Positions 1,042-17,353 of a stretch of 23,891 nt of DNA are shown here, in pieces. The notes beneath the pieces were generated by a model, which made no database searches, was not told where the DNA came from, and saw nothing but the letters and a program-made list of their open reading frames with translations. The position numbers were made by a program, and so were the translations under genes. Position 1 is the first letter of the stretch. The number at the start of each line of letters is the position of its first letter. This DNA comes from a virus, in IMG/VR virus record IMGVR_UViG_3300037189_023248, positions 1 through 23,891 of that record; one strand, given 5' to 3'.

Positions 1042-1556
1042 AATTAGACCTAATTACAGAACTAGTAGAAAGTAGAATGTTCCGTAGTGAACGTTCTATA
1101 TCTACTATTCCTCCTCGACAGCTGGCAGAATATTTTTATGTGGCGCTTTTATATCTTAATGCGTTAAGATATGAAAAATCCAATGGGGCAAAAAGCTACG
1201 CACAATCAACTTTACGATACAACGAGTTTGATAGTGTTAAGAGCTCTGCTACAGATTTATACAATCTTGCTGCTGGTGCATTAAAAAATCAACAGTTTCC
1301 TGAACTAGGTTTTAAGCGTTGGTTACATGATATTATTGCTGAAAGAGAAGATACCAGACAAGATTATACCTTGTTTACAAAATTTGAAGATGTGCTAAAA
1401 ATAGACTCTTCCGGTATTCGTGGGCTCAGACGCATTAGCATATACTACAACGAGTATTCTGCAGCAGCTAAGAAAAATTTTTGGGTTACAATGAATCGCT
1501 ATCTAAGCACACATATGAGAACTATTGATTTACTAGCGTTAAAACCAAATTTTTAA
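1038..1556 (+). CDS. Hypothetical protein, 172 aa
   Basis: Not recognised. The ATG at 1038 overlaps the TGA of the upstream nucleotidyltransferase-like gene (ATGA), which supports the start and suggests co-expression with that gene. The protein looks soluble, helical and rich in Tyr, Arg and Lys, with no signal peptide or membrane segment and no motif I can assign. Codon use and AT content resemble the neighbours. The next gene has its own promoter-like box and ribosome binding site, so this is probably the last gene of its transcript. Confidence 0.75.
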   Translation: MKLDLITELVESRMFRSERSISTIPPRQLAEYFYVALLYLNALRYEKSNGAKSYAQSTLRYNEFDSVKSSATDLYNLAAGALKNQQFPELGFKRWLHDIIAEREDTRQDYTLFTKFEDVLKIDSSGIRGLRRISIYYNEYSAAAKKNFWVTMNRYLSTHMRTIDLLALKPNF

Positions 1557-1563
1557 CAATCAG

Positions 1564-1572
1564 CATAAATAC
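1564..1572 (+). promoter_or_regulatory. T4-late-type promoter box
   Basis: CATAAATAC lies 42 nt before the ATG at 1614 and just after the preceding stop. It matches seven of eight positions of the T4 late consensus TATAAATA and belongs to a set of similar boxes in this window. Confidence 0.5.
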
Positions 1573-1613
1573 TATTAGTGCTTAACGGCACATATTTATA
1601 AAGGAAAAATATC

Positions 1614-1970
1614 ATGGCAGTAGTAACAAGAGTAAATGGCAGCGTGGCTGCAGTTGAGCTCGTAGGGCGCGATCTAAAGTTTGTTAAATGTGCAGCAACT
1701 GGTCTAGAGACCAGCTACACAAACGTCGACAGTAACTTTGAAAAAGCTGTTCGTGTATTGGCTAAGTTTTGCACAATCACTATCGTTGGCATTCCTGCTT
1801 CAGGTAACTGCATGTTTGTCGTAGAAGGTCTACCTTCCGGTAACGTTATTAACGTTAGTGGCACATCACAAGCAATTGCAACTGCTCTAGCAACAGACGC
1901 TGACGCAGCCAATGGTCTAACATCAACATGGACCATTTATGATGGTCTAAGCGGCACTAGCTTCGCTTAA
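1614..1970 (+). CDS. Small Ala/Val/Thr-rich protein, probable virion protein
   Basis: A 118-aa protein of unknown family, rich in Val, Ala, Ser, Thr and Gly, with a pattern suggesting beta-strands and no membrane segment. AAAGGAAAA before the ATG is a good Shine-Dalgarno. It has its own late-type promoter box (1564) and is followed at once by a strong intrinsic terminator (1992-2013), so it is a monocistronic late unit. That layout, with its composition, fits an abundant small structural or decoration protein; this is inference from context only. Confidence 0.7.
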   Translation: MAVVTRVNGSVAAVELVGRDLKFVKCAATGLETSYTNVDSNFEKAVRVLAKFCTITIVGIPASGNCMFVVEGLPSGNVINVSGTSQAIATALATDADAANGLTSTWTIYDGLSGTSFA

Positions 1971-1991
1971 TTAGTTTTTGGGATGGGAAGG

Positions 1992-2013
1992 GGCGGACTT
2001 GTTCCGCCTTTTT
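1992..2013 (+). terminator. Rho-independent terminator
   Basis: Stem GGCGGA (1992-1997) pairs perfectly with TCCGCC (2003-2008) around the loop CTTGT, followed by a run of five T. It sits 22 nt after the stop at 1970. Confidence 0.85.
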
Positions 2014-2035
2014 CTTTGGCCGAAAATTCTTGCTG

Positions 2036-2042
2036 TTAAATA
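2036..2042 (+). promoter_or_regulatory. Late-type promoter box (variant TTAAATA)
   Basis: TTAAATA ends 6 nt before the ATG at 2048. If it works like TATAAATA, transcription would start at or beside the start codon. Confidence 0.3.
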
Positions 2043-2047
2043 TAAAC

Positions 2048-2470
2048 ATGTATTATTATCACGTGTTTACTTTGTTTGACATTACAGCAACAGGCGCAAT
2101 ACGACACCCGAAACCCACAGAAACTAATCATAAAGCCTTATTATTATTAAGAAATCAGCAGCGTAATTGGGAAACAATACAGCAAGCACTAGGTATGCGA
2201 GCACAGATTTATATCGATTCCCCACCTGACATTATTGAATCGTGCAATATGTTTTCTAAGAAGAAATTTAAAAATACGCAAGCATGGCATTTTCGTTTTG
2301 GGGTTGAAACAGCAGATGTGTATGGTTCAGATTTGAACTTATTACTAGCAGATTGTCACGGTATACCAATGATATTAGGTTTAAACGAATTAGCAAAAAT
2401 TCCTCAACCCATATTAGAGTGTCGAGGAGAAATTATAAACACATATATTCATTTTGATAACCAAGCGTAA
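2048..2470 (+). CDS. Hypothetical protein, 140 aa
   Basis: The frame can be extended to a TTG at 2030, but the ATG at 2048 gives a cleaner N-terminus (MYYYHVFTLFDITATG) and is preferred. No Shine-Dalgarno precedes either start, while a TTAAATA box ends 6 nt before the ATG. The body holds RNQQRNWETI and LLADCHGIPMI stretches that I associate with uncharacterised proteins of T4-like aquatic phages; no catalytic motif is evident. It starts after the terminator at 1992-2013 and so is a separate unit. Confidence 0.7.
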   Translation: MYYYHVFTLFDITATGAIRHPKPTETNHKALLLLRNQQRNWETIQQALGMRAQIYIDSPPDIIESCNMFSKKKFKNTQAWHFRFGVETADVYGSDLNLLLADCHGIPMILGLNELAKIPQPILECRGEIINTYIHFDNQA

Positions 2471-2474
2471 ATAT
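2466..2474 (+). promoter_or_regulatory. Late-type promoter box (variant GTAAATA)
   Basis: CGTAAATAT overlaps the stop of the preceding gene and lies 42 nt before the ATG at 2516, the same spacing as the box before the gene at 1614. Confidence 0.35.
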
Positions 2475-2515
2475 TTGATATTGCGCTATAATTTACAAAT
2501 AGCAGAGGAATTTAA

Positions 2516-2824
2516 ATGGTTGGTAATACAACAGACATAGAAAAGAAAAGCCTTGAAGCTCACGTTGAGCTATGCGCTGAACGTTACAAAAGCCTACACG
2601 ATAAACTTGATAGTCTAGATTCTCGTGTTTCAACCATTGAAGCAAAGATCGATTTAAAGATGGATCAGATCGAAACTACTATGGAAAGCAAGTTTGGCGA
2701 AATCAAAGACGCTATAAACAAACTGCAAGAAAAACGAAACAACCAACTAATTACGTGGGGTGTATCCATTATAGGCGGACTGATAACCGTGGTATTAACC
2801 ATGGTGTGGAAGTTTATAATGTAA
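2516..2824 (+). CDS. XhlA/holin-like coiled-coil protein with C-terminal membrane anchor
   Basis: A 102-aa protein. Residues 5-75 form a long charged amphipathic helix with heptad spacing, followed by one hydrophobic segment at about 78-100 (WGVSIIGGLITVVLTMVW) and a short tail. This plan (cytoplasmic coiled coil, C-terminal TM) matches the haemolysin XhlA family, which often accompanies holins. AGAGGAA is a good Shine-Dalgarno for the ATG. The SleB-type lysin is about 9 kb away, so a lysis role is possible but context does not prove it; any tail-anchored oligomeric membrane protein would look alike. Confidence 0.7.
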   Translation: MVGNTTDIEKKSLEAHVELCAERYKSLHDKLDSLDSRVSTIEAKIDLKMDQIETTMESKFGEIKDAINKLQEKRNNQLITWGVSIIGGLITVVLTMVWKFIM

Positions 2825-2850
2825 GTTTTAAAAATTTTGGATCATAATTG

Positions 2851-2859
2851 TGTAAATAA
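2851..2859 (+). promoter_or_regulatory. Late-type promoter box (variant GTAAATA)
   Basis: TGTAAATAA precedes the possible starts at 2869 and 2878 by 10-19 nt. Confidence 0.3.
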
Positions 2860-2868
2860 CAACACATT

Positions 2869-3339
2869 ATGATTTTTATGGAAAAAAACTTACACTCTAA
2901 AATATTAAAATTTTTAAACAAAGAGTTATTTGACCAAGAACTTAATTCTGCTGTTTTAAAAAAGATTGATAATCAGCGTTATAAAATTTCAAAATACCAA
3001 GTTGCGACATCTACTGCTACTGTTGAAGATTCAACAGGTGCGTTGTATCAGTTTTTAAATGTTTCTTCCGCAGTAGTATATTGTTGTTTAATGTCAACTA
3101 ATAGATTGAACGAAGCATACACTGTGCGTTTTCTTAATGACGAATTAGGACGACTGGCTCAAAAAATAAAGATTACTAAAAAACGAGCGTTATCTACATC
3201 AAATCCAGCGAATAAAGACATAATGGTAGCTAAATTGCTAGAATATGAAAATCAATATACTGCAAAAGTAGATCAACTGAAGAAAAATATCGCCCAGGCT
3301 AAATATATTATAAAACCAGGACACGCAAATGGAAGTTAA
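2869..3339 (+). CDS. Hypothetical protein, about 155 aa
   Basis: Not recognised. Two in-frame ATGs (2869 and 2878) are both possible; neither has a Shine-Dalgarno, and the GTAAATA box at 2851 is just upstream. The protein is Lys-rich and mainly helical, with a likely coiled coil in the last 60 residues (LLEYENQYTAKVDQLKKN). Its end overlaps the next gene by 11 nt, so it starts a three-gene coupled cluster running to 4335. Confidence 0.7.
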   Translation: MIFMEKNLHSKILKFLNKELFDQELNSAVLKKIDNQRYKISKYQVATSTATVEDSTGALYQFLNVSSAVVYCCLMSTNRLNEAYTVRFLNDELGRLAQKIKITKKRALSTSNPANKDIMVAKLLEYENQYTAKVDQLKKNIAQAKYIIKPGHANGS

Positions 3340-4006
3340 AGACATGTTTAATCAACCAAAATTTGTTAAACTTAACAAGCTATTAGAAAGCCGTTATGGA
3401 TACAAATTTGACTCAGGCGCAATGACAGTAGGGCGAGCTCGCTCTATGCTAAAACTAGTTGAGTCACGTATTCAAAGCATTCAGCATTCGCACAAGAATT
3501 TTGTATCAGAAAAAGAACCTGCGTATTGCCAGTTAATCCTCATGCGCGAAAGTCTATCGGCTTGGGTTAAAGAGCGCACATTAGTCGAAGGCGAAATTGG
3601 CGAAGCCGAAGCTAAAGTAGCAGCAAATTCTATCACCAACGCTGTGCAAAAAATGATTAAAGATGCCAGCAAAATTGTCGACGAGGAACTGCCTGCATTA
3701 GTTGGTGTTATTAGAGATCAAATTGGTATTGCTGAAGCTGATGCTTACAAAAACTCTGTAGATCCTTTGATTAAAGAATTGCGTACACAACTTGAAACAG
3801 TTAGAGATTCTCTTGAACAAAGTGTAATGGCATTGAGTGGCGAACAAATTCAAACTGATATGTCTATGCCCGGTCCGCAAATGAATACACCAGGTGTTGC
3901 AGGAGATGAAGATATGGGTACTCCTGCACCTGATTCGGGTGATAATTTTGCAGCATCAGCAGCTGAAACAGGTGGAACTGAGCCACTAGGTCGTGCTCGT
4001 AGATAA
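3329..4006 (+). CDS. Coiled-coil acidic-tailed protein, possible structural or scaffold protein
   Basis: A 225-aa protein. The N-terminal 35 residues are basic, residues 45-165 are predicted helical/coiled coil, and the last 55 residues are low-complexity (Pro, Gly, Asp, Ala, Ser) ending in EPLGRARR. Helical rods with disordered acidic tails occur in phage scaffold and core proteins, but gp21/gp23-type head genes are not nearby, so the assignment is open. CAGGA 7 nt before the ATG supports the start inside the previous gene. The stop overlaps the next ATG (TAATG). Confidence 0.7.
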   Translation: MEVKDMFNQPKFVKLNKLLESRYGYKFDSGAMTVGRARSMLKLVESRIQSIQHSHKNFVSEKEPAYCQLILMRESLSAWVKERTLVEGEIGEAEAKVAANSITNAVQKMIKDASKIVDEELPALVGVIRDQIGIAEADAYKNSVDPLIKELRTQLETVRDSLEQSVMALSGEQIQTDMSMPGPQMNTPGVAGDEDMGTPAPDSGDNFAASAAETGGTEPLGRARR

Positions 4007-4335
4007 TGTTATTGTTTGAAATTTTTACCGATGACGTCAAAAATCAAGTGCTTGCACTAATTACTACCATTGACCGTCGGTATAAGAATAAACAAGCTAC
4101 GCCTAAAATAAAAACTCGTAGCTTTCTAAAACTAGCAAACAATGTTGGTATTACTTTAGACTACGAAAGTTTTGTAGATCTTGTTGAAAAAAATCCTGTG
4201 TTGAAAAACAAAATTGTTAATTTCAACAAAGACACTATTTCGTTTGGCAGCAAAGAAGATAGTGATTCTACCACTCATGCCAACGATCAACAAGACATTG
4301 TATCAAAAATGGCACAGCAATCGGTAAAAATTTAA
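4006..4335 (+). CDS. Hypothetical protein, 109 aa
   Basis: Not recognised. The ATG at 4006 overlaps the preceding TAA, so translation is probably coupled; no Shine-Dalgarno is visible. The N-terminal 75 residues are basic and look folded (helix-rich), while the C-terminal 30 are polar and Gln/Ser/Asp-rich. It is the last gene before the sigma70-type promoter at 4346-4374. Confidence 0.7.
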   Translation: MLLFEIFTDDVKNQVLALITTIDRRYKNKQATPKIKTRSFLKLANNVGITLDYESFVDLVEKNPVLKNKIVNFNKDTISFGSKEDSDSTTHANDQQDIVSKMAQQSVKI

Positions 4336-4345
4336 TAAAAAGTCG

Positions 4346-4374
4346 TTGTTTTTGGCAAAAATTTTTGTTATACT
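4346..4374 (+). promoter_or_regulatory. Sigma70-type promoter
   Basis: TTGTTT (4346-4351), a 17-nt spacer and TATACT (4369-4374) with T-G two bases upstream of the -10. The expected start is near 4381, giving a leader of about 32 nt for the nuclease gene at 4413. Confidence 0.5.
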
Positions 4375-4412
4375 GTAGATCAAGGCTGTCCACAAAGTTG
4401 GGCAATTTTTAA

Positions 4413-5117
4413 ATGATAACAAAAAAATTTAACTATATCGAGTTTGGTAGAACTACAGAAGACGGTAAAAGATTGTATCTCGCGCCAGATGGCAGCAAAC
4501 TGCCTTCGGTTACAACCATACTTGATGCCACCAAAACTGAAGAACAGAAAAAATCTCTCCAAGAATGGCGCAATCGTGTAGGGCACGAGCGAGCAACACA
4601 GATAACTACAGAAGCTGCTAATCGCGGCACCCGTATGCACACCTATTTAGAAAGGCATATTAAAAACGGGGAAATTGGTGCTGTGCCCAGCAATCCTTTT
4701 GCACAACCTAGTTGGCTTATGGCTCATGCTGTTGTAGAAGCAGCATTTCACAAAGTTGATGAATTTTGGGGAACAGAAGTTCCGTTGTACTACAGCGGTC
4801 TTTATGCCGGAACTACTGATTGTGTAGGGCAATGGCAAGGAAAACCTGCTATACTTGACTTTAAACAAAGCAACAAAGTTAAAAAGCGTGAGTGGATTGA
4901 CGATTATTTTATGCAATTAAGTGCTTATGCACTAGCACACGATAAAATGTACAATACCAATATAGATCATGCTGTGATTCTCATGTGTGTAAAACCTGTA
5001 AACGACGAATCAGTGCCCGAGTATTTGGAGTTTGAAGTTGGTGGAAACGAATTTGAAATGTGGAAAGGGCGGTGGCTAGACCGTGTTTCAGAATACTATT
5101 CAAAAATACATAAATAG
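4413..5117 (+). CDS. RecB-like PD-(D/E)XK nuclease
   Basis: A 234-aa protein with the full motif series of the Cas4/RecB/lambda-exonuclease branch of PD-(D/E)XK enzymes: RGTRMH (71-76, with His76), Glu122, GTTD (133-136, metal ligand Asp136), ILDFK (147-151, Asp149 and catalytic Lys151) and QLSAY (168-172). These residues would bind Mg2+ and cut DNA phosphodiester bonds. The length suits a single-domain nuclease with no helicase attached. A role in phage recombination, DNA processing or host DNA breakdown is inferred. It has its own host-type promoter (4346-4374) and no Shine-Dalgarno before the ATG; early or middle expression is plausible. Confidence 0.88.
   Translation: MITKKFNYIEFGRTTEDGKRLYLAPDGSKLPSVTTILDATKTEEQKKSLQEWRNRVGHERATQITTEAANRGTRMHTYLERHIKNGEIGAVPSNPFAQPSWLMAHAVVEAAFHKVDEFWGTEVPLYYSGLYAGTTDCVGQWQGKPAILDFKQSNKVKKREWIDDYFMQLSAYALAHDKMYNTNIDHAVILMCVKPVNDESVPEYLEFEVGGNEFEMWKGRWLDRVSEYYSKIHK
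5109..5117 (+). promoter_or_regulatory. T4-late-type promoter box
   Basis: CATAAATAG overlaps the last codons and stop of the nuclease gene and lies 25 nt before the tailspike ATG at 5142. Confidence 0.5.
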
Positions 5118-5141
5118 TTTAACAATTGGAATTTGTAGATT

Positions 5142-6758
5142 ATGGCTATTAATGTTATTGGTAGAATTCAAGTACGCAGTGGACTCAATGATGACCTCCC
5201 ACAACTAGCCAAAGGTGAGTTTGGGTGGAGCGTAGATACACAACAACTATATATTGGTAATGGCACTGTCGCCGATGGGGCTCCACAAACAGGTAATACA
5301 GAGTTATTAACAGCAACCGGCCTCAATGATGCTCTTGCTAATACTAATTACACTCTTCTAGATATAGGTGGGGCTGTTGTACCGATTACAGGCCCCGGTG
5401 GGTCTTCTACTTTCTTATCCTTACAGTCTGTATTGGATGATGGATTTATTTCTGTTAAAAAGTTTGGAGCCGTTGGTGATGGAGTAACTAACGATCTTGA
5501 CGCAATAAACAACGCATTATACCAACTGTACTGTCTTGCTGTAGCAACTGTGCCGCAGGTTAAACGTGTACTGTACTTTCCAGCTGGCGTATACAAAATT
5601 ACCGGTGGTGTTTTAAAGATCCCTCCATTTTGCACAATAATCGGAGATGGTGTAGACAGTACTATTATTAAACAATTTGACTCCACCCAAGAGTATATTG
5701 CTAAGTTTTCAGATTCGCTACAACAAGTAGACAATCTGTACGGGACTGTTCTCAACAATGTTACACCTGGACTATCGCAGTTTGTAACAATTTCAGACTT
5801 GACATTTTATCATACAGACAGTAGAAGTATTGTTTACGCTATTGCTTCAAACAATATTTCTTTTTCTAGGGTTAAATTTAGAGGTGCACTATCTAATCCT
5901 ACTGTAGTAGGTACTGGTTGCTCGGCGGTAGTACTAAGCAATAATACAACTAATACAGTTTCTTCTTATAACTGGCTGTTTGATAATTGTATTTTTACTA
6001 AACTACCTTATGCTTTTTTAAGCAACAGTGATACCAAATCAGTTAATTTTCAAAATTGTACATTCAGTGAATTGTATAAAGGTATTGTTCTAGGTCTGTC
6101 TCTAGACGCTAACAATATTATTGGGCCTTATTACTATAAATTTACTTACAACGATTTTGACAAAATCAGCAGTTATGCTATTCAATTAGAAACTGGTAAA
6201 AATGCAATCTCTCAAGGCAATACCTTTAGAGATGTTGGAAATACACAAACCGGTATTTCTAACCCGGCGGTTGAAAACATTAGATTCAACGGAACCAACT
6301 GTATTTCTAGCAACGACATATTTGACAGAACTGCTGCACAAGCAATTCTTGTGGCTTGGGTATATTATAAGCCAGGTGCCGCAGGATCTAACAGTTTACT
6401 AACTTTTTCTGCCAATGGTAGCACAGTTACTTCATCTGGCATTGTAAGAACACTGAATAACAATACCATTGCTGTTACTGCATTAGATATTGAAATTCCA
6501 ATCATTACAAAAAGTTTTGAAATGAGTTATAGTATCACTAGAACCATTAGCTCTGTGGTACAAACTCGCAACGGCACCTTACGCAGTACCGCCGGAGTTT
6601 CCGAGGATGACTATACAGAAACTGCAACACTTGGTATTACATTTAGTGTTGCTCTTAGTAATGCTTCAAATTCGTGGGTAGTTAAATACACAACTACTAA
6701 TTTATCACCGGCAGCTGATGCTACATTGTCTGCACAGTGCCGCTACTTTTTATCGTAA
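5142..6758 (+). CDS. Tailspike/tail-fibre protein with pectin-lyase-type beta-helix
   Basis: A 538-aa virion protein. Residues 5-45 (RIQVRSGLNDDLPQLAKGEF, then TQQLYIGNG) match the short N-terminal module found at the start of many phage fibre and receptor-binding proteins. Residues 108-122 (FGAVGDGVTNDLDAI) and 146-151 (FPAGVY) are the entry signature of the pectate_lyase_3 parallel beta-helix, followed by Asn/Gly-rich repeats to about residue 400. The last 130 residues are Thr/Ser-rich and beta-like, perhaps a trimerisation or receptor-binding tip. Polysaccharide binding or depolymerisation is known for the fold; catalytic residues cannot be named here. A late-type box 25 nt upstream of the ATG fits late expression. 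Confidence 0.85.
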   Translation: MAINVIGRIQVRSGLNDDLPQLAKGEFGWSVDTQQLYIGNGTVADGAPQTGNTELLTATGLNDALANTNYTLLDIGGAVVPITGPGGSSTFLSLQSVLDDGFISVKKFGAVGDGVTNDLDAINNALYQLYCLAVATVPQVKRVLYFPAGVYKITGGVLKIPPFCTIIGDGVDSTIIKQFDSTQEYIAKFSDSLQQVDNLYGTVLNNVTPGLSQFVTISDLTFYHTDSRSIVYAIASNNISFSRVKFRGALSNPTVVGTGCSAVVLSNNTTNTVSSYNWLFDNCIFTKLPYAFLSNSDTKSVNFQNCTFSELYKGIVLGLSLDANNIIGPYYYKFTYNDFDKISSYAIQLETGKNAISQGNTFRDVGNTQTGISNPAVENIRFNGTNCISSNDIFDRTAAQAILVAWVYYKPGAAGSNSLLTFSANGSTVTSSGIVRTLNNNTIAVTALDIEIPIITKSFEMSYSITRTISSVVQTRNGTLRSTAGVSEDDYTETATLGITFSVALSNASNSWVVKYTTTNLSPAADATLSAQCRYFLS

Positions 6759-6956
6759 TCATATTAAAAAACGCTATATATCAAATGCAAAAAAATTTAA
6801 AATACTCATACAATCAACAATTCTTGAAAGTAAATATTCAACGAATCATAAAAATTTCTCCGTGAGAAATAACTAAAGCATAAAAAAACAAAATTTAATC
6901 TTAGCTGAGTTCTAAGCAGAGTGTCTGTACCTCGAAAAATTATAAAGGATGTAAAA
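6759..6956 (+). other. Gap upstream of nrdA, no gene seen
   Basis: About 200 nt of very AT-rich sequence. It holds a 7-bp inverted repeat (ATTTCTC 6854-6860 with GAGAAAT 6864-6870) with no T run after it, a GTAAATA-like box near 6830 and an AAAGGA Shine-Dalgarno just before the nrdA start. I see no convincing gene or clear sigma70 promoter. Confidence 0.4.
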
Positions 6957-8174
6957 ATGGTAAAAATTGATGTAACTAGAGATGAATTATTTTCCGAACA
7001 AGGTTTAGATTTACTAAACAAGTATTATTCAGATGGCAAAGAAGGGGTACAGCGAGCAATAGCACGAGCGGCAATAGCATTCAGTTACGGCGACAAAGAA
7101 CTGGCACAATTCATTTATGACGCAGCAAGTCAGCATCATTTTTTCTACTCTAGTCCTATTTTATCAAATGCACCTGAGGGTCAGTGGGATCCTAATGTAG
7201 ACTACACCAGTAAAGAATTTTGGGCACCTGAAAATAGCGAGGCGCGCCGTTGTGCTTGGTTAGGCGCAAAACCCAAAGCATTGCCAATTAGTTGCTTCTT
7301 AGGTTATGTTGAAGACACCATCTCTGGACAAATTTCCAGCAGCAGCGAACTAGCGCTACTAAGTGTTGCAGGTGGCGGGACAGCACTGCACAACGGCATT
7401 CGTGCTGTAAGTGACAAAGCACCTGGCCCCATTCCTTACATCAAAACCATTGACGGGATCATGGGCTATTATAGGCAAGGCAAGACTCGCCGCGGCAGTT
7501 GTGCTGTATACATGGACATTGATCATCCTGACATACTAGAATTTATTAAAATGCGTACTCCATCGGGCGGAGATACAGCTCGTAAAATTACTAACCGCAA
7601 AGGTGTACACAACGCAGTAAACATCACAAAAGAATTTATTACAGCAGTTAACGAAAACAAACTTTTTGATCTACGTTGCCCTCATGGTGGAGATGTGCGC
7701 GACAGCGTACCTGCCCGTGAACTATGGGAAACCATTCTAGAAACCCGCGAACTCACAGGCGAGCCTTATATTTGGCTCAAGGACAATGCCAATGCTGCAC
7801 TACCTGAAGCGCAAAAGAAACTAGGACTAACCAACCGTGGCAGTAACCTGTGTTTAACTGGCGACACTTTGATTGAAATTTCTGTTCATCCAATAACAGG
7901 TAATGTTGTTAAACTTCCACTAGCAGATTTCATTGAAAAATGGGATCTAGGATATTATGATACTGTGTATGTTAAAACCATCAAGGATGGGCAACTGCAT
8001 TGGGCACAAATTACTGCTGCTGGAAAAACTGGAGACGTTACAGAACTTATCGAAATCGAAACTCCTAGCGGTAAAAAAATAACCTGCACTCCCGAACATA
8101 AGATTTTTACTAAAAATCGTGGGTGGGTAGAAGCCCAACATTTAGTAGAAAGCGATGAGCTATTGGAGGAGTAG
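6957..8174 (+). CDS. nrdA: Ribonucleotide reductase class I large subunit, N-terminal half fused to N-intein
   Basis: Residues 1-298 are the N-terminal part of the class I alpha subunit, which reduces NDPs to dNDPs for phage DNA synthesis. FFYSSPILSNAP (62-73) and PISCFLGY (Cys113, the redox-active active-site cysteine) are visible. From residue 299 the sequence becomes an N-intein beginning CLTGDTLIE and ending at a TAG stop. The ATG at 6957 is chosen because AAAGGA lies 8 nt upstream; a GTG at 6921 would only add 12 residues. The N-terminus lacks the roughly 90-residue ATP-cone of E. coli and T4 NrdA, so dATP feedback through that site is probably missing. The rest of the enzyme is encoded at 9172-10224 and must be joined by protein trans-splicing. 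Confidence 0.93.
   Translation: MVKIDVTRDELFSEQGLDLLNKYYSDGKEGVQRAIARAAIAFSYGDKELAQFIYDAASQHHFFYSSPILSNAPEGQWDPNVDYTSKEFWAPENSEARRCAWLGAKPKALPISCFLGYVEDTISGQISSSSELALLSVAGGGTALHNGIRAVSDKAPGPIPYIKTIDGIMGYYRQGKTRRGSCAVYMDIDHPDILEFIKMRTPSGGDTARKITNRKGVHNAVNITKEFITAVNENKLFDLRCPHGGDVRDSVPARELWETILETRELTGEPYIWLKDNANAALPEAQKKLGLTNRGSNLCLTGDTLIEISVHPITGNVVKLPLADFIEKWDLGYYDTVYVKTIKDGQLHWAQITAAGKTGDVTELIEIETPSGKKITCTPEHKIFTKNRGWVEAQHLVESDELLEE
7851..8171 (+). other. N-intein (107 aa) of split NrdA intein
   Basis: Block A is CLTGDTLIE with Cys1 as the splice nucleophile. Block B is TPEHKIF (Thr and His spaced T-x-x-H), which assists the N-S acyl shift. The length is typical of a natural split N-intein. 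It ends in a stop rather than continuing into an endonuclease domain. Confidence 0.9.
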
Positions 8175-8189
8175 TTTGGTGTTATGAAA

Positions 8190-8233
8190 TTTGGTTCCTT
8201 ACTGGTAAATAAAATAGACAGTAAGGAACCAAA
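8190..8233 (+). promoter_or_regulatory. 15-bp hairpin masking the HNH gene ribosome binding site, with late-type box in loop
   Basis: TTTGGTTCCTTACTG (8190-8204) is the exact reverse complement of CAGTAAGGAACCAAA (8219-8233). The 3' arm contains AAGGA, the Shine-Dalgarno of the endonuclease ATG at 8234, so read-through nrdA mRNA should hide it. The 14-nt loop holds GTAAATA (8205-8211), a variant of the T4 late box. A transcript started from it would begin near 8217, lack the 5' arm and expose the site. Confidence 0.8.
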
Positions 8234-9175
8234 ATGGATTACAAGCAACTTTATAAAAATATGATTCAACTCGCAAGGCAAGAAGATAGAAAAAAACACT
8301 GTGGGATATATTATGAATTACATCACATTGTTCCAGAGTTTATGTTTAAAAATAGAAGAAGAACTGGGCCAAAAGGGCACCTTGAAGGTAATCCTGAATC
8401 TAAAGATAATAAAATTTTGTTAACATTTAAAGAACATCTCCTTGCTCATTATTATCTTTATGAAATATATAAAGGAACTCGGTATGAGTACTCTGCTGGT
8501 TCAGCTTTACAGTTTTTCTTTACTAAGGCAGGTAATAACCATATAAGGCAAGTTGAATTATCAAAAGTTGACGAAAATTTTCTTGAAGAAATGGAATATC
8601 TAAGAAAAATAGGCATTGATAGTATTTCTCAGGCAAGGAAAGGAAAAATGCCTGTAGTTGATGCTGTTACCAGAGAAAAAATTGGTTCGGTTCCTGTGGA
8701 TCATCCACGAGTAAAGTCTGGAGAATGGGTGCATCATTCATCGGGTAAAAAAATTACTGAATCAGCTAGAAGTAATAAAAAATCACAACATAAAGAAAAT
8801 AATAATAACTATAAACCCCTAACTGCTGAGTTAGAGTCTAAAATTTTTGAGTGTATAACAAGAGCAATCGAAGATGATATGTTGGTTAGGAATGTGTTTG
8901 TAAAAAATATCAAAGAATCAATCACTGAGTTTAAAAAAATATCGCATGTATGGATTAATAACCGTTACGGTAGCATACAAAACCTAGTAGATTTGTATAA
9001 TAAAAAATTTGACACTAATATTAAATTTAATCCGTATTACAGATCAAAAGCACAAAGATCTGCCCTTAGAGATCGATCGTCAATCTATATGTGGGTTACA
9101 AACGGCGAAACCAATTTAAGAATTTTTAAAAGTGAAGAGATACCAAATGGATTTAAAAAAGGAAGAATATTATGA
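8234..9175 (+). CDS. Free-standing HNH homing endonuclease
   Basis: A 313-aa protein. Residues 27-72 carry the HNH pattern: YELHHIV (His30-His31), DN (58-59) and KEHLLAH (Glu67-His68 to His72), as in T4-like phage mobile endonucleases. A middle stretch (VPVDHPRVKSGEWVHHSSGK) and a C-terminal WVTNGxxN/IPNGFKKGR motif also recur in such proteins and probably bind DNA. It should make a site-specific cut in nrdA genes lacking the insertion. It lies between the two halves of nrdA, and its stop overlaps the C-intein ATG (ATGA). Expression is probably restricted by the hairpin at 8190-8233. It is more AT-rich than the flanking nrdA exteins, as expected of a mobile gene. Confidence 0.9.
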   Translation: MDYKQLYKNMIQLARQEDRKKHCGIYYELHHIVPEFMFKNRRRTGPKGHLEGNPESKDNKILLTFKEHLLAHYYLYEIYKGTRYEYSAGSALQFFFTKAGNNHIRQVELSKVDENFLEEMEYLRKIGIDSISQARKGKMPVVDAVTREKIGSVPVDHPRVKSGEWVHHSSGKKITESARSNKKSQHKENNNNYKPLTAELESKIFECITRAIEDDMLVRNVFVKNIKESITEFKKISHVWINNRYGSIQNLVDLYNKKFDTNIKFNPYYRSKAQRSALRDRSSIYMWVTNGETNLRIFKSEEIPNGFKKGRIL

Positions 9176-9273
9176 TAAAAATTACTAGAATCAAAGTTGA
9201 AAAAACTCCAGTATACGACATTACAGTACCCGAAACTGAAAGTTTTTTTGCTAACAATGTATTGGTTCATAAC
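9172..9273 (+). other. C-intein (34 aa) of split NrdA intein
   Basis: Block F is VYDITVPETESFFANN and block G is VLVHN followed by Cys+1. The penultimate His33 and terminal Asn34 needed for Asn cyclisation are intact, so trans-splicing should work. Confidence 0.9.
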
Positions 9274-10224
9274 TGCAGTGAAATTAGCCTTAGTACCAAC
9301 TCTGAACGTACTGCTGTGTGCTGTCTTAGCAGCGTTAATTTAGAACGTTATGAAGAATGGAAGGACACAGGTCTAGTTGCTAAACTTACACGATTTTTAG
9401 ATAATGTTATCCAATGGTTTATTGATTGGAGTCCAGCTGAACTACAAAAAACTCGTTTTAGCGCTCAACAAGAACGTGCCCTTGGTATTGGTGCAATGGG
9501 TTGGCACAACTTTCTAATGAGCAAAAACATTCCTTTTGAGGGTGGTGGGTTTGGTAGCGCTACTCAATGGAATCACATTATTTTTTCTCGTATGCACGAA
9601 GAAGCAGTAGCTGAATCCAAGCGTCTAGCTACTGAGCGCGGAGAAAGCCCTGACATGGTTGGTACCGGGCGCCGAAATAGTCATTTGTTTGCTATTGCTC
9701 CTAACGCCAATAGTTCAATCCTATGTAATACTACTCCTAGCATTGAGCCTATGGCCAGTAACGCATACACACAAAAAACACGAAATGGCATTTTTCAAGT
9801 GCGTAATCGCTACTTAGAACCCGTGCTAGAAAAATACGGCACTAATACGCCAGAAACATGGAAAAACATTGAAAAAAACAACGGTTCTGTGCAACATTTG
9901 GTTGAATTATCGCCAGAAGAAAAAGAAGTGTTCAAGACTGCGTGGGAGATTGATCAGCATTGGTTAATTGAACACGCAGAAGCTCGTCAACAGTATATTT
10001 GCCAAAGTCAAAGTCTAAACTTGTTTTTCTTACCCGGAACCGAGCGCGCCTACATCAACAGTGTGCATCTAAAAGCTATTCGTAGTAGTAGTCTAAAGAG
10101 CTTGTATTATTTTAAAACAGGTGCTAAAATAGCAGCTGACACAATTAAAAAAATGCAACGAGTTAAACTAGAAGATTGGAAAGAATCTTCTGAGTCAGAA
10201 ACTTGTGTTGCTTGCGAAGGATAA
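9172..10224 (+). CDS. nrdA: C-intein fused to C-terminal half of ribonucleotide reductase large subunit
   Basis: Residues 1-34 are the C-intein, ending VLVHN; residues 35-350 are the NrdA C-terminal half. Visible class I landmarks are Cys35 in NCSEIS (equivalent to E. coli thiyl-radical Cys439, with the neighbouring Glu of the NxCxE motif), Cys50 (redox partner, Cys462 equivalent), PNANSS, the LYYFKTG pair of radical-transfer tyrosines and the C-terminal CVAC (345-348) that passes electrons from thioredoxin or glutaredoxin. AAGGAAG about 8 nt upstream supports the ATG. After splicing the enzyme would be 614 aa (298 + 316). nrdB follows 12 nt later. Confidence 0.93.
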   Translation: MIKITRIKVEKTPVYDITVPETESFFANNVLVHNCSEISLSTNSERTAVCCLSSVNLERYEEWKDTGLVAKLTRFLDNVIQWFIDWSPAELQKTRFSAQQERALGIGAMGWHNFLMSKNIPFEGGGFGSATQWNHIIFSRMHEEAVAESKRLATERGESPDMVGTGRRNSHLFAIAPNANSSILCNTTPSIEPMASNAYTQKTRNGIFQVRNRYLEPVLEKYGTNTPETWKNIEKNNGSVQHLVELSPEEKEVFKTAWEIDQHWLIEHAEARQQYICQSQSLNLFFLPGTERAYINSVHLKAIRSSSLKSLYYFKTGAKIAADTIKKMQRVKLEDWKESSESETCVACEG

Positions 10225-10236: not shown

Positions 10237-11187
10237 ATGTCATTATTAGAAACAAGTAAAACCTACGTTCCCGCCTACCCTGAGTTTGTAGAAATTACAA
10301 GACTGCATGAAGAGCTGCACTGGCACGAGGGCGAAGCCAAACTGCAAGAAGATGTTGAACAGTGGAAAACTGGTAAAATTACCGAACAAGAAAAGTACTT
10401 TATCAACAGTATTCTTAGATTGTTTGTGCAAAGCGACGTAGCAGTAGGCAGTGACTATTATGATAACTTGATTCCTGTATTCAAAAACAATGAAGTTCGC
10501 AATATGTTGGGTAGTTTTGCTGGCCGCGAAGGAGTTCATCAACGTGCTTACGCACTGCTTAGTGACACATTAGGATTTGGAGACAGCTTTTATCAAGAGT
10601 TCCTTGAGTACGAGGACATGAAGGAAAAATACGAATACATGATGGACATGAGCAACAGGACCTATCGTGATATTGCTGCTAGTTTGGCCAAACAAGTACT
10701 GATTGAAGGTGTGTGTTTGTTCGCTAGTTTTGCTATGCTGTTGAATTTTCAACGGTTTGGAAAAATGGCTGGCATGAGTGACATCAACTTGTGGAGCATT
10801 CGTGATGAAAGTGTCCATGTGCAAGGAGTAGCGCTGTTGTTTAGAAAATTTTTGATAGAACATCCTCGTGTGGTCAACAACGAATTTAAAAGCGAAATCT
10901 ACATTACCGCAGCACGAGTGGTTGAACTAGAAGACAAGTTTATTGACCGAGCATTCGAATTGGGCGGCGTTCCTGGAATTACCAAAGAAGAAGTTAAGCA
11001 ATATATTCGCGCTGTGTGCGACTATCGCATGACACAGTTAGGGTTCAAAACACAGTTCAATGTTACTAATCCGTTTGAGTGGCTAGACTGGCTAACCAGC
11101 AGCAACGCTATTGAAAACTTTTTTGAGACCAACACCGTAGGTTATAGCAAAAACAGCATGATAGGACATTACGCCGAAGCCTATTGA
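10237..11187 (+). CDS. nrdB: Ribonucleotide reductase class I small subunit
   Basis: A 316-aa beta subunit that makes the tyrosyl radical for NrdA. The metal ligands fall in order: Asp67 (VQSDVA), Glu98 and His101 with radical Tyr105 (REGVHQRAY), Glu157 (LIEGVC), Glu191 and His194 (RDESVH). The length is near normal for the compact class I family and all seven key residues are present. AAAGGAA before the ATG is a good Shine-Dalgarno. It follows nrdA-C by 12 nt and is surely co-transcribed with it. The last codons overlap a consensus sigma70 promoter for the next gene. Confidence 0.95.
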   Translation: MSLLETSKTYVPAYPEFVEITRLHEELHWHEGEAKLQEDVEQWKTGKITEQEKYFINSILRLFVQSDVAVGSDYYDNLIPVFKNNEVRNMLGSFAGREGVHQRAYALLSDTLGFGDSFYQEFLEYEDMKEKYEYMMDMSNRTYRDIAASLAKQVLIEGVCLFASFAMLLNFQRFGKMAGMSDINLWSIRDESVHVQGVALLFRKFLIEHPRVVNNEFKSEIYITAARVVELEDKFIDRAFELGGVPGITKEEVKQYIRAVCDYRMTQLGFKTQFNVTNPFEWLDWLTSSNAIENFFETNTVGYSKNSMIGHYAEAY

Positions 11188-12389: not shown

Positions 12390-12428
12390 ACGCAAAAATG
12401 TTGTAAAAAAACAACAATTTTGGTGTGG

Positions 12429-12457
12429 TTGACGCCCATTTAATGTGGTGCTATAAT
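12429..12457 (+). promoter_or_regulatory. Near-consensus sigma70 promoter, leaderless start predicted
   Basis: TTGACG (12429-12434), a 17-nt spacer and TATAAT (12452-12457). The usual 7-nt distance from the -10 puts the transcription start on the A of the ATG at 12464. Confidence 0.75.
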
Positions 12458-12463
12458 TACTAC

Positions 12464-12796
12464 ATGGATAAAGCACCTACCCCAAAGAAGCGCAAGCGTC
12501 GCAACGACTGCCGGCACGTTGTCTATTGCCTGGAAAACTCGCTTACTGGCGAGCAGTACATTGGCATTACAGTTGCTAGCGGAAATGTCAACACTGCGCT
12601 AAAAATCCGTGTGCAAAAGCACGTTCGGCGGGCATTAACAGAAAACAAAACCTGGACACTTTGCAAGGCAATTCGCGAGCATGGTGCTGAGAATTTTGTT
12701 TATTGGATTATGGAAACTGTTCGTGGGCGACTTGCTGCTCACGCTAGAGAACGTGAGTTGATTTCAACTTTTGGGCCTGCACTAAACACTAGATGA
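12464..12796 (+). CDS. GIY-YIG nuclease-like protein
   Basis: A 110-aa protein with a basic N-terminus (PKKRKRRN) and a minimal GIY-YIG domain: VVY (19-21) for GIY, YIG (32-34) for YIG, Arg49, His53, Glu98 (RERELI) and a terminal Asn near 108. These match the catalytic set of the superfamily, which cuts DNA with one metal ion. It is shorter than free-standing homing enzymes and has no separate DNA-binding domain except the basic tail. The ATG at 12464 is preferred over the GTG at 12425, which would lie upstream of the promoter. It overlaps the deaminase gene (ATGA). Confidence 0.8.
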   Translation: MDKAPTPKKRKRRNDCRHVVYCLENSLTGEQYIGITVASGNVNTALKIRVQKHVRRALTENKTWTLCKAIREHGAENFVYWIMETVRGRLAAHARERELISTFGPALNTR

Positions 12797-14237: not shown

Positions 14238-15404
14238 ATGTCTGAAACTACACCCTCTCAATGTAATTTTTGTGGGAAAAATCATGACCAAGTGGTGAAA
14301 CTAATAGTTTCATCAACTGCTGCAATTTGCAATGAGTGTATTTCATTGTGCACAGATATTCTAAGTAAACAAAGCAAAACTAAACCACAAGAAGAATTTG
14401 ATCTAAATCCTCAAGCAATTTATAACTATATAGACAAGTATGTAATTTCTCAGCGTTATGCTAAAGAAAAATTAGCGGTTTCGGTAATAAATCACTACAA
14501 AAGATGCATGTTTGACGACAAAAACCAAGTAGAAAAAACTAATATACTGTTTTGGGGACCAACTGGCACAGGAAAAACTCTACTGGCCAAAACCATTGCT
14601 GATTATTTGGGCGTGCCTTTTGTGATTATTGACGCCACTACTATTACCGAAGCTGGGTATGTAGGAAACGATGTCGATATAATTATTGACAAATTATACC
14701 ATGCTTCTGAGTTTGATGTGGATCAAACTGAACGTGGAATAGTGTTTATCGACGAAGTTGATAAAATTGCTAGATCATCTGAAACTCCTTCAACCGGCAA
14801 AGACATCAACGGCGAAGGTGTACAACAAGCATTGCTTAAAATGGTAGAAGGTACTACTATTAAATTGTCAAGCCCTAAAAAAGTATTTGGTACTGACTCG
14901 GTAGAAATTAACACAGGTAAAATACTATTTGTAGCATCAGGTGCCTTTGTTGGGTTAGATGAGCTAGCTAAAAAACGTCGAAGCAGTGCAGGTATAGGAT
15001 TTGGAAGCTCAAACTTGTTGCCGACGCAATCAAGGTTTCCTGCAGATCCGGTTGATTTTATTAAGTTTGGAATGATTCCCGAATTCATGGGTCGCTTTCC
15101 TTCTATTGTTCATACAGAGCAACTCACAATAGATGATTTGTTTGAAGTAATAAAAAACAAAAACAACGGTATATTAGAACAGTACAAATTTTATTTTGGC
15201 GCTAGCGCAATCGAATTAGAAATTGATGACGACGGATTAAAAGCAATTGCAGAACATGCAATAAAAATAAAGTTAGGCGCTCGTGGATTAAGATCAATAT
15301 TTGAAATAATTACTCATGACTATCTTTTTAATATTGGTAAATTAATAGAGCAGGATACCAAAAAATTAAAACTAACAAGAGAGGATGTAATAAAATATCT
15401 ATGA
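14238..15404 (+). CDS. clpX: ATP-dependent protease unfoldase ClpX
   Basis: A 388-aa AAA+ unfoldase with the full ClpX plan: an N-terminal C4 zinc domain (Cys9, Cys12, Cys31, Cys34) for substrate and adaptor binding, Walker A GPTGTGKT (107-114), pore-1 loop GYVG (140-143), Walker B FIDEVD (170-175), the IGF loop (253-255) that docks in ClpP, PEFMGR with arginine finger Arg286, and sensor-2 GARGLR (347-352). It is slightly shorter than E. coli ClpX (424 aa), mainly at the C-terminus. With the IGF loop kept and no clpP in the window, it probably works with host ClpP. There is no Shine-Dalgarno before the ATG. It overlaps the bS21 gene by four bases. Confidence 0.95.
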   Translation: MSETTPSQCNFCGKNHDQVVKLIVSSTAAICNECISLCTDILSKQSKTKPQEEFDLNPQAIYNYIDKYVISQRYAKEKLAVSVINHYKRCMFDDKNQVEKTNILFWGPTGTGKTLLAKTIADYLGVPFVIIDATTITEAGYVGNDVDIIIDKLYHASEFDVDQTERGIVFIDEVDKIARSSETPSTGKDINGEGVQQALLKMVEGTTIKLSSPKKVFGTDSVEINTGKILFVASGAFVGLDELAKKRRSSAGIGFGSSNLLPTQSRFPADPVDFIKFGMIPEFMGRFPSIVHTEQLTIDDLFEVIKNKNNGILEQYKFYFGASAIELEIDDDGLKAIAEHAIKIKLGARGLRSIFEIITHDYLFNIGKLIEQDTKKLKLTREDVIKYL

Positions 15405-15646
15405 GTAAATTTAACCCATACGACAGTAAATTAAAAGGAACATTAGTTTATGTTTCCAATGACAATGTCGATCAGGCTTTACGCAAGTTCAAGAAAAAAG
15501 TCATAGACTGTAATTTATTAAAAGATCTACAAGCTCGCGAATGCTACGAAAAACCCAGCATCACACGTAAGGTTAAGGCTAAAGCGGCTCGCAATCGGTG
15601 GCGTCGAAAATTAGGTGCAGATGCGATTCCTACCAAAAAATATTGA
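15401..15646 (+). CDS. rpsU: Ribosomal protein bS21 homologue
   Basis: An 81-aa basic protein matching bS21: VYVSNDNVDQALRKFKKKV (16-34), then LLKDLQARECYEKPS (39-53), and a basic tail with the KxKAxxxRWRRKL pattern (57-71). bS21 sits on the 30S platform near the anti-Shine-Dalgarno end of 16S rRNA and is among the last proteins to join. Phage-borne bS21 is known from pelagiphages and metagenomic phages. The ATG overlaps the clpX stop (ATGA), so the two are coupled. It may replace host bS21 and bias initiation toward phage mRNAs; that effect is inferred. Confidence 0.9.
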   Translation: MSKFNPYDSKLKGTLVYVSNDNVDQALRKFKKKVIDCNLLKDLQARECYEKPSITRKVKAKAARNRWRRKLGADAIPTKKY

Positions 15647-15673
15647 CACTCTTTGAGAGTTGTTGTATAAATA
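15643..15673 (+). promoter_or_regulatory. Hybrid sigma70/late-type promoter of hsp20
   Basis: TTGACA (15643-15648), a 17-nt spacer and TATAAATA (15666-15673), so one box could serve both as sigma70 -10 (TATAAA) and as a T4-late box. The expected start is near 15679. Confidence 0.7.
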
Positions 15674-15733
15674 GTAATGTTGATGCCCGATTGGGGTCGA
15701 CAATGTAATCTTGCTTAAATAAGGAGAAAAAAC
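15666..15733 (+). promoter_or_regulatory. hsp20 leader shared with dnaK leader
   Basis: Blocks ATAAATA, TGATGC, GGGTC, AATCTTGCTTA (15707-15717) and AAGGAGAAA occur in the same order as in 19460-19535 upstream of dnaK. AAGGAG is the Shine-Dalgarno for the ATG at 15734. Confidence 0.65.
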
Positions 15734-16186
15734 ATGACTACATATACACTTCAGGGTTTTGACTTACCCACACTACATCGTAAATTTATTGGCTTTGATC
15801 CACTGTTTGAAGATCTAACACGAGCCTTTCACAACAAAAACGATAACTATCCCCCGTACAACATTGTACGAGTTGACGAAAGTCGTTTTGTTATTGAAAT
15901 AGCAATCGCTGGTTTTCAGGAAAGCGAGCTAGACGTATCACTAACCAACCGTATCTTAAACATCACCGGTAAGCGTCGCATTGATGCAACTGCTAGCGAG
16001 AAAGAATACCTACATCGTGGTATTAGCAGCCGTGATTTTGAGCGTACATTCACACTTGGTGAGCATATGGAAGTCGTTGGTGCATCTGTAAAAAATGGCA
16101 TCCTAACAGTTACATTGGATCAGCAGATTCCAGACGAAGCCAAAACTCGCCGTATTGCTATCAGTTCAGAAAGCACTAGCGGTTGA
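15734..16186 (+). CDS. hsp20: Small heat-shock protein Hsp20 (IbpA-like)
   Basis: A 150-aa holdase. The N-terminal arm (1-40, LHRKFIGFDPLFEDL) resembles IbpA/IbpB. The alpha-crystallin domain spans about 42-130 (YNIVRVDESRFVIEIAIAGF, ending GILTVTL), and the C-terminal IxI motif is IAI (141-143), used for oligomer docking. Such proteins bind unfolding clients and hand them to DnaK. Hsp20 genes are known in cyanophages and other T4-like phages, where they are thought to help virion assembly. The promoter is strong and the leader is shared with dnaK, implying common control. Confidence 0.95.
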   Translation: MTTYTLQGFDLPTLHRKFIGFDPLFEDLTRAFHNKNDNYPPYNIVRVDESRFVIEIAIAGFQESELDVSLTNRILNITGKRRIDATASEKEYLHRGISSRDFERTFTLGEHMEVVGASVKNGILTVTLDQQIPDEAKTRRIAISSESTSG

Positions 16187-16211
16187 CTTTTAGTTAACAC
16201 TAGTTTAATAT
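16183..16211 (+). promoter_or_regulatory. Candidate sigma70 promoter for clpS
   Basis: TTGACT (16183-16188), a 17-nt spacer and TAATAT (16206-16211), overlapping the end of hsp20. The expected start is near 16218, at the foot of the following hairpin. Confidence 0.5.
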
Positions 16212-16215
16212 ACAC

Positions 16216-16243
16216 AAGGAGCGGTGCCAATGCGCTGCTCCTT
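16216..16243 (+). promoter_or_regulatory. Hairpin covering a Shine-Dalgarno upstream of clpS
   Basis: AAGGAGC (16216-16222) pairs perfectly with GCTCCTT (16237-16243) across a 14-nt loop. It is not followed by a T run, so it is not a good terminator. The masked AAGGAG is spaced 8 nt from the mini-ORF ATG at 16230. Confidence 0.6.
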
Positions 16244-16256
16244 ATATGGAATTTAA
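16230..16256 (+). CDS. Eight-codon upstream ORF (MRCSLYGI) before clpS
   Basis: ATG at 16230 follows AAGGAG with ideal 8-nt spacing and reads eight codons to TAA at 16254-16256, two bases before the clpS ATG. clpS itself has no Shine-Dalgarno, so ribosomes finishing this mini-ORF could re-initiate on clpS. No family can be assigned to so short a peptide, and its translation is inferred. Confidence 0.45.
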   Translation: MRCSLYGI

Positions 16257-16258
16257 TA

Positions 16259-16570
16259 ATGACTGCTAACGAAACTGATGTTGCTCAAAAAACAAAAACA
16301 CGCAAGTTATTAAAAGAACCACCAAAATACAAAGTCATTTATCTTAATGATGATGTTACTACAGTAGAATTTGTAGTTGAAACTCTGGTGCAAATTTTTA
16401 ATTACGATCGCCACGATGCTGAAAATAAAGCAATGGAAATAAACCAAAATGGAAGCGGTATTGTAGCTGTACTGCCTTATGAAATTGCTGAACAAAAAGG
16501 TATTGAAGTTACTATGCTAGCAAGGAATAACAATTTTCCATTGCAAGTTCGAATTGAACCAGATTTATAA
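16259..16570 (+). CDS. clpS: ClpS-type N-degron adaptor
   Basis: A 103-aa protein with a flexible basic N-terminal tail (1-20) and the ClpS core: PPKYKVIYLNDD (21-32), TVEFVVE (35-41), then GSGIVAVLPYEIAEQK (65-80) and the closing NNFPLQVRIE. ClpS brings proteins with Leu, Phe, Tyr or Trp at the N-terminus to ClpA. The Asn30-Asp31-Asp32 pocket is kept, but the usual pocket His (E. coli His66) is Asn62, and the gatekeeper Met40 is Val36, so ligand preference may be altered. No clpA is seen here; ClpX of this phage is not the known partner, so host ClpA or a new pairing is implied. Confidence 0.92.
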   Translation: MTANETDVAQKTKTRKLLKEPPKYKVIYLNDDVTTVEFVVETLVQIFNYDRHDAENKAMEINQNGSGIVAVLPYEIAEQKGIEVTMLARNNNFPLQVRIEPDL

Positions 16571-16571
16571 A

Positions 16572-16751
16572 ATGGAAAAAGAAAAAACTGTTAGAGAACA
16601 AATCGACCAATTATTATGGTTTCACGGAATAACAGAGAAAGTTGAGATCGAAACAGAAGTAGAGGATATAATTTTAACTCAACTCAAAGACGAAAAACTT
16701 AATAGAGTATGGGTCGAAGATGGTTCGTTGGTGATAGACTTTAACGACTAA
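16572..16751 (+). CDS. Small acidic hypothetical protein, 59 aa
   Basis: Not recognised. ATG at 16572 begins 1 nt after the clpS stop; a TTG at 16554 inside clpS would add six residues but has no Shine-Dalgarno either. The protein is rich in Glu and Asp (EKVEIETEVEDIIL, then VWVEDGSLVIDF), with alternating strands and helix. It is probably co-translated with clpS. It meets the J-protein gene tail to tail with a 4-base overlap. Confidence 0.65.
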   Translation: MEKEKTVREQIDQLLWFHGITEKVEIETEVEDIILTQLKDEKLNRVWVEDGSLVIDFND

Positions 16752-17335: not shown

Positions 17336-17340
17336 GTTTT

Positions 17341-17348
17341 GTATTTAG
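17341..17348 (-). promoter_or_regulatory. Late-type promoter box of the J-protein gene
   Basis: Reads CTAAATAC on the - strand; its last AAATA base is 7 nt from the ATG at 17335, predicting a leaderless or nearly leaderless mRNA. Confidence 0.4.
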
Positions 17349-17353
17349 TTTGT

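What the first reader, a model, noticed from the sequence alone, without database searches (positions are those of the whole stretch)
6957..10224. nrdA split into two genes by a trans-splicing intein with an HNH gene between the halves
The N-half ends in an N-intein and stop; the C-half begins with a C-intein. All splice residues are present (Cys1, T-x-x-H in block B, penultimate His, terminal Asn, Cys+1). The homing endonuclease is a separate gene in the gap. This matches the 'fractured gene' arrangement (Dassa et al. 2009) and may be a new, fast natural split intein.
Basis: partly seen in the sequence, partly recalled or inferred. Interest (0 to 1): 0.85.

Follow-up and report, generated by a model that had tools for sequence, protein, structure and literature searches.

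The report
Phage nrdA split by trans-splicing intein
A phage gene for an essential DNA-building enzyme is broken into two genes that are probably re-joined at the protein level by a split intein, with the intein's DNA-cutting 'spreader' gene parked in the gap behind what looks like an RNA hairpin lock; the arrangement is a known kind, but the hairpin recurs in most related loci and gives a directly testable regulation.

Summary
NrdA is encoded by two genes ending and beginning in matching intein halves, inserted at SNL^C, immediately before the conserved Cys of the NLCxEI motif. A 313-aa HNH-type homing-endonuclease gene fills the gap and overlaps the C-half start by 4 nt (ATGA). Two other contigs (99.9% and 99.6% identical) carry the same arrangement, so it is not an assembly error. 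Relatives with 87-91% identical NrdA have an uninterrupted gene. About 30 viral contigs and Yersinia phage TG1 carry homologous N-intein/nuclease/C-intein cassettes in NrdAs only about 21-30% identical to this one, so the cassette moves as a unit and was acquired horizontally. Selection on intein and nuclease is purifying in relatives. This is a new member of the fractured-gene split-intein class (Dassa 2009), best read as functional; splicing itself is untested. In related loci it usually coincides with a T4-type late promoter (10 of 21 exact, 0.2 expected), across HNH, GIY-YIG and other nucleases. This predicts NrdA halves early, nuclease late. In the window the promoter match is weak (6 of 8).

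The parts
6957..7850 (+). N-extein of NrdA (298 aa, ends ...NRGSNL)
   Evidence: PF02867/PF00317 and PRK09102 hits; aligned end to end with intact NrdA of L008-L014
7851..8174 (+). N-intein (107 aa, Cys1...TPEH...) and stop TAG
   Evidence: PF14890, TIGR01445 above cut-off, NrdJ-1 structure 8ubs E 1.4e-11
8190..8233 (+). 15-bp hairpin (8190-8204/8219-8233) that buries the HNH Shine-Dalgarno AAGGAA (about 8223-8228) directly before its ATG
   Evidence: MFE -23.6 kcal/mol, z -5.4, 0 of 200 shuffles as stable; equivalents in nearly all homologous spacers
8204..8211 (+). weak T4-late-promoter-like element GGTAAATA in the loop region (6 of 8 to TATAAATA)
   Evidence: homologous spacers often have exact TATAAATA; weak evidence in the window itself
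8234..9175 (+). free-standing HNH-type homing endonuclease gene (313 aa)
   Evidence: PHROG 655 E 5e-15; invariant E28, H30, H31, P34, N59, E67, H68, H72 over 15 homologues; beta-beta-alpha order in a low-confidence AlphaFold model
9172..9175 (+). ATGA overlap of HNH stop and C-half start
   Evidence: the same -4 overlap in most HNH-type loci
9172..9273 (+). C-intein (34 aa, MIKITRIKVEKTPVYDITVPETESFFANNVLVHN)
   Evidence: TIGR01443 above cut-off; PF14890
9274..10224 (+). C-extein of NrdA (316 aa; begins CSEI, Cys+1 = the conserved Cys of the NLCxEI motif) and stop
   Evidence: PF02867 E 7.5e-57; intact relatives read SNL-CSEI
10237..11187 (+). nrdB, the small RNR subunit, directly downstream
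   Evidence: PF00268 E 6e-64

Best explanation
This is a mobile fractured-gene cassette in a phage class I nrdA. (1) The nrdA message gives an N-half precursor (extein plus N-intein) and a C-half precursor (C-intein plus extein). The intein halves associate and trans-splice SNL to CSEI, giving a 614-aa NrdA and restoring the active-site NLCxEI motif at the seam (inferred from sequence; splicing not shown). (2) The HNH endonuclease between them cuts intein-less nrdA at or near SNL^C, and repair copies the whole N-intein/HNH/C-intein cassette into the break (inferred; supported by empty-site relatives and tree conflict). (3) The nuclease is held silent on read-through nrdA transcripts by a hairpin over its ribosome-binding site. 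The C-half, whose own Shine-Dalgarno lies unstructured in the 3' end of the HNH gene, can still be translated. In many relatives a T4-type late promoter in or beside the hairpin would make late transcripts that lack the 5' arm and so release the nuclease (inferred from anatomy and from the I-TevI and Aeh1 mobE precedents). Likelihoods: trans-splicing about 0.9; cassette homing by the HNH enzyme about 0.75; hairpin translational lock about 0.7; late-promoter release in this particular phage about 0.5.
For: Complete splice residues and half-intein profile hits. Same site, same residues in about 25 homologous loci with exteins only 21-30% identical but inteins 39-56% and HNH 29-57% identical. The extein tree places the window with intein-less NrdAs (SH-aLRT 100), the intein tree with the HNH-cassette group (94). 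Intact NrdA at 87-91% identity in L008-L015. 44 of 47 loci found with an HNH profile lie beside nrdA intein halves. Purifying selection. No intron model in the gap. Hairpin: window z -5.4; start regions of the nuclease genes fold better than 200 control starts, medians -10.5 and -4.1 kcal/mol, p 3e-8. Covariation: 134 of 144 pairs against at most 132 in 2000 shuffles, with the GTG start of L122 matched by CAC in the other arm. TATAAATA exact in 10 of 21 spacers, 0.19 expected. A gp55-like late sigma factor is found in four related contigs. All four TATAAATA in the window are intergenic, although only 8% of it is. Open C-half RBS, MFE -1.4.
Against: No splicing, cleavage or expression was measured. 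The late-promoter match in the window itself is weak (6 of 8), and 4 TATAAATA in the whole window is not more than chance in number (mean 2.55). The 29.5-kb twin contig holds no gp55 hit, though it is a fragment. Hairpins are marginal in L079, L089, L095 and L104, and in L073/L075, L071 and L133 no clear Shine-Dalgarno is sequestered. No co-conversion tract is visible around the site. Related sequences are not independent, so the shuffle counts are not true probabilities.
Confidence: 0.85

Rival explanations
1. The two halves work as a two-chain enzyme without splicing, like NrdA-a/NrdA-b of Aeromonas phage Aeh1, and the intein halves are inert.
For: Aeh1 NrdA split by mobE keeps function without a self-splicing element (PMC3653736, read).
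Against: Here the break carries complete intein halves with every splice residue kept, the conserved active-site Cys is at the seam, and in relatives the intein halves evolve with dN/dS mostly 0.02-0.1, which inert tails would not.
Confidence: 0.06
2. The gap is an HNH-bearing group I intron removed from the RNA.
For: HNH genes often sit in phage nrd introns (PMC2988022).
Against: No Rfam match other than chance hits; only 59 nt of non-coding DNA remain around the HNH gene; the exteins are bounded by intein sequence in frame, and near relatives lack exactly intein plus HNH.
Confidence: 0.02
3. The locus is a decaying gene or an assembly error.
For: Interrupted nrdA genes of Campylobacter phages have been read as degenerating (PMC3653736).
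Against: Two independent contigs share the structure with a few base differences; all parts are intact here and under purifying selection in relatives.
Confidence: 0.02
4. The spacer hairpin is a transcription terminator or mRNA-stability element, not a translational lock.
For: It is a stable 15-bp stem between two genes.
Against: No U-run follows it and the terminator scan does not call it; homologous hairpins overlap the Shine-Dalgarno or start codon and covary with it, including a GTG start in L122.
Confidence: 0.15

Closest known systems
Fractured genes with split inteins of marine metagenomes (Dassa et al. 2009), e.g. NrdA-2, NrdJ-1, gp41-1
   Same: Enzyme gene split by intein halves with a free-standing endonuclease gene between; seven nrdA cases were reported (cited in PMC3653736). 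Nearest solved intein is NrdJ-1 (36/93).
   Different: Nuclease here is an HNH enzyme of PHROG 655; from memory the new family of that paper is Vsr-like. The hairpin/late-promoter pattern was not found described in the papers searched; the Dassa text was not held.
Yersinia phage vB_YenM_TG1 nrdA (KP202158)
   Same: Same SNL^C site, N-intein, HNH gene, C-intein; exact TATAAATA in an RBS hairpin.
   Different: Extein 24%, intein 39%, HNH 32% identical to the window; the record names two RNR pieces and an HNH gene, with no intein in the product names.
Aeromonas phage Aeh1 nrdA-a/mobE/nrdA-b
   Same: HNH gene splitting nrdA; RBS-sequestering hairpin with late promoter (PMC2988022).
   Different: No protein splicing; the two chains associate (PMC3653736). 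Aeh1 sequence was not compared directly here.
Continuous inteins at the same nrdA site (Rheinheimera phage Barba8S; L017)
   Same: Same SNL^C insertion site in a related NrdA.
   Different: Single reading frame with a long in-frame insert that reads like a LAGLIDADG nuclease (by eye, not tested); cis-splicing.

Membership tests
Fractured-gene split intein (Dassa type) | Host enzyme gene split into two ORFs ending and starting in matching intein halves | tested here: met
Fractured-gene split intein (Dassa type) | Complete splice residues (Cys1, TxxH, His-Asn, Cys+1) | tested here: met
Fractured-gene split intein (Dassa type) | Free-standing homing endonuclease gene between the halves | tested here: met
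   PHROG 655; homologues
Fractured-gene split intein (Dassa type) | Trans-splicing activity | not testable with these tools
   Needs co-expression and mass spectrometry
HNH homing endonucleases (PHROG 655, T4 MobC-like) | HNH catalytic motif conserved | tested here: met
   homologue L074 passes the Pfam HNH cut-off; the window protein itself has no Pfam hit
HNH homing endonucleases (PHROG 655, T4 MobC-like) | Fold matches a solved HNH structure | tested here: inconclusive
   Model pTM 0.43, no Foldseek PDB match
HNH homing endonucleases (PHROG 655, T4 MobC-like) | Cuts the intein-less allele | not testable with these tools
   Empty-site relatives exist
T4-type hairpin/late-promoter regulated endonuclease | RBS-sequestering hairpin | tested here: met
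   Predicted structure
T4-type hairpin/late-promoter regulated endonuclease | Late promoter TATAAATA at the hairpin | tested here: inconclusive
   Window GGTAAATA only; exact in 10 of 21 related spacers
Group I intron | Intron core detectable | tested here: not met

The most novel reading that the evidence does not exclude
Fractured split-intein cassettes are a two-speed mobile module: essential enzyme halves are translated early from read-through mRNA while an interchangeable nuclease (HNH, GIY-YIG or another kind) is locked by an RBS hairpin and released by a phage late promoter. Splitting the intein would thereby let the parasite uncouple nuclease timing from host-enzyme synthesis, which an in-frame intein nuclease cannot do, and would help explain why phage inteins are so often split.
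Probability: 0.45. Interest if true: 0.7.

Novelty: new member of a known kind. Interest (0 to 1): 0.5.

Why it matters
It adds a natural split intein related to the fast NrdJ-1 type, with many homologues for orthogonal tools. It also gives comparative evidence that fractured-gene nucleases share a translational lock and late promoter across nuclease families, which makes the question of why phage inteins become split testable.

Tried and rejected
Group I intron in the gap: no Rfam support. Assembly error: rejected by two other contigs. Co-conversion tract around the insertion: identity to empty-site relatives is about 80% throughout, no tract seen. Terminator reading of the hairpin: no U-run. 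Dassa 2009 full text is not held, so whether it described HNH nucleases or hairpins could not be checked. In one search the L119 row was anchored two bases off (its stem pairs in the shifted register), and the last base of its spacer was mistyped; neither affects the TATAAATA count, and the pair count is if anything lowered. In one search and the automatic start codon was wrong for L070, L119 and L122; these were read by eye.

Full report
What is there. The window is a 23,891-base virus record. At 6957-10224 nrdA is encoded in two genes. The N-half (6957-8174) is a 298-aa NrdA N-extein ending GSNL followed by a 107-aa N-intein and a TAG stop. The C-half (9172-10224) is a 34-aa C-intein ending VLVHN followed by a 316-aa C-extein beginning CSEI. 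Between them lies a 313-aa ORF (8234-9175) whose TGA stop overlaps the C-half ATG as ATGA. nrdB follows at 10237. The half-inteins are recognised by Pfam and NCBIfam models, and the closest intein of solved structure is NrdJ-1 (8ubs, E 1.4e-11; 36 of 93 aligned residues identical).

The middle gene. It has no Pfam match, but PHROG 655 'homing endonuclease' matches at 5e-15, with T4 MobC and the HNH gene of Yersinia phage TG1 as distant relatives. Fifteen homologues share the invariant residues E28, H30, H31, P34, N59, E67, H68 and H72, and the homologue in L074 passes Pfam's HNH cut-off. The predicted model has the expected strand-strand-helix order but is of low global confidence and finds no PDB match. 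The HNH assignment therefore rests on sequence.

Not an artefact. Two other IMG/VR contigs, from other metagenomes, carry the same locus at 99.9% and 99.6% identity (11 and 31 mismatches).

Empty sites and mobility. Eight contigs (L008-L015) have 87-91% identical NrdA with no insert; those read at the junction run SNL-CSEI without a gap. Homologous cassettes occur at the same motif in NrdAs that are only 21-30% identical to this one, while inteins are 39-56% and HNH proteins 29-57% identical. The extein tree puts the window with intein-less NrdAs (support 100), the intein tree with the HNH-cassette group (94). An HNH-profile scan returned 47 loci, of which 44 lie beside nrdA intein halves. In one set of loci the junction is one codon further on (SNLC|C...N|CEI). 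Continuous inteins sit at the same site in Rheinheimera phage Barba8S and L017. The site is thus a hot spot, entered repeatedly by split and continuous inteins. In closely related pairs the intein halves and the nuclease have dN/dS of 0.02-0.26, mostly below 0.15.

Different nucleases in the same place. The gap holds HNH enzymes (window, TG1, L074, L079-L097 and others), GIY-YIG enzymes (Pfam match for L072 and for Klebsiella phage KP13-7; L073, L075 and L076 by sequence resemblance), or an enzyme matching Phage_endo_I/TnsA (L071), with a short remnant of that kind in L070.

The overlooked part: regulation. The 59-nt spacer between the N-half stop and the HNH ATG folds into a 15-bp hairpin that ends at the ATG and contains the Shine-Dalgarno in its 3' arm (-23.6 kcal/mol, z -5.4). 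The start regions of the nuclease genes in homologous loci fold far better than 200 other gene starts from the loci (medians -10.5 and -4.1; p 3e-8). In the short-spacer group 134 of 144 core pairs are standard, above all 2000 shuffles; changes on both sides occur in L091, L093, L096 and L122, where a GTG start is matched by CAC in the opposite arm. TATAAATA, the T4 late promoter element, is exact in 10 of 21 distinct spacers against 0.19 expected, and ATAAATA is present in 17 against 0.59. It lies mostly 17-31 nt before the start codon, so that late transcripts would lose the 5' arm. The window's own element is only GGTAAATA. Contigs of four related loci encode a gp55-like late sigma factor. 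This is the I-TevI, segB and Aeh1 mobE arrangement described for T4-like phages (PMC2988022). I found no paper in the library that reports it for split-intein cassettes, but the key 2009 paper was not readable. The C-half's own ribosome-binding site is unstructured (-1.4 kcal/mol), so the hairpin need silence only the nuclease.

Shown and inferred. Shown: gene layout, motif completeness, homologues, empty sites, tree conflict, purifying selection, hairpin and promoter statistics. Inferred: trans-splicing, cleavage of the empty allele, and early/late timing.

Verdict. A real, intact new member of the fractured-gene split-intein class. The conserved hairpin and late promoter are the part most worth following.

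Noticed in passing
L148 (Campylobacter phage CPt10, NC_027996) 2187-6254; L150 (IBB_35): nrdA annotated as disrupted, and read as a pseudogene in PMC3653736, looks like a fractured gene: N-half ending in an N-intein (NLC|CLAGDT), C-half starting MIKITKKTEKIPVYDIEV...VHN|CEIS, plus a continuous mini-intein later (AGN|CISEDH...SHN|SS). It may be functional.
   Followed up: partly
L149 (Klebsiella phage KP13-7, OP617745) 1529-7059: nrdA appears to lie in four pieces: a gap with an HNH_3 gene that may be an intron (no Rfam match), a first split intein with a GIY-YIG gene, and a second split intein (PGE|CQSWDN.../MKIVKIEKNG...SHN|TSSQ) with a 323-aa ORF between. One protein would need two separate trans-splicing reactions.
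   Followed up: partly
window 14238-21449: Host-like chaperone and protease-adaptor set on a phage contig: ClpX, Hsp20, ClpS, DnaJ, a tRNA-Ser and a full-length DnaK.
   Followed up: no
window 1593, 15666, 17479, 18152: All four TATAAATA matches are intergenic although only 8% of the window is; three are on the + strand just upstream of genes, suggesting T4-type late promoters.
   Followed up: partly
window 12425-12796: Small ORF with a weak GIY-YIG match (E 0.004, below cut-off), possibly another free-standing endonuclease.
   Followed up: no
L070 5972-6215: Split nrdA intein whose gap holds only an approximately 85-aa ORF without an ATG start, resembling the end of the L071 nuclease: possibly a split intein that has lost its nuclease.
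   Followed up: no
L079-L097 loci: In many loci the intein junction lies one codon after the usual site (SNLC|C...N|CEI instead of SNL|C...N|CxEI) although inteins and nucleases are homologous.
   Followed up: partly
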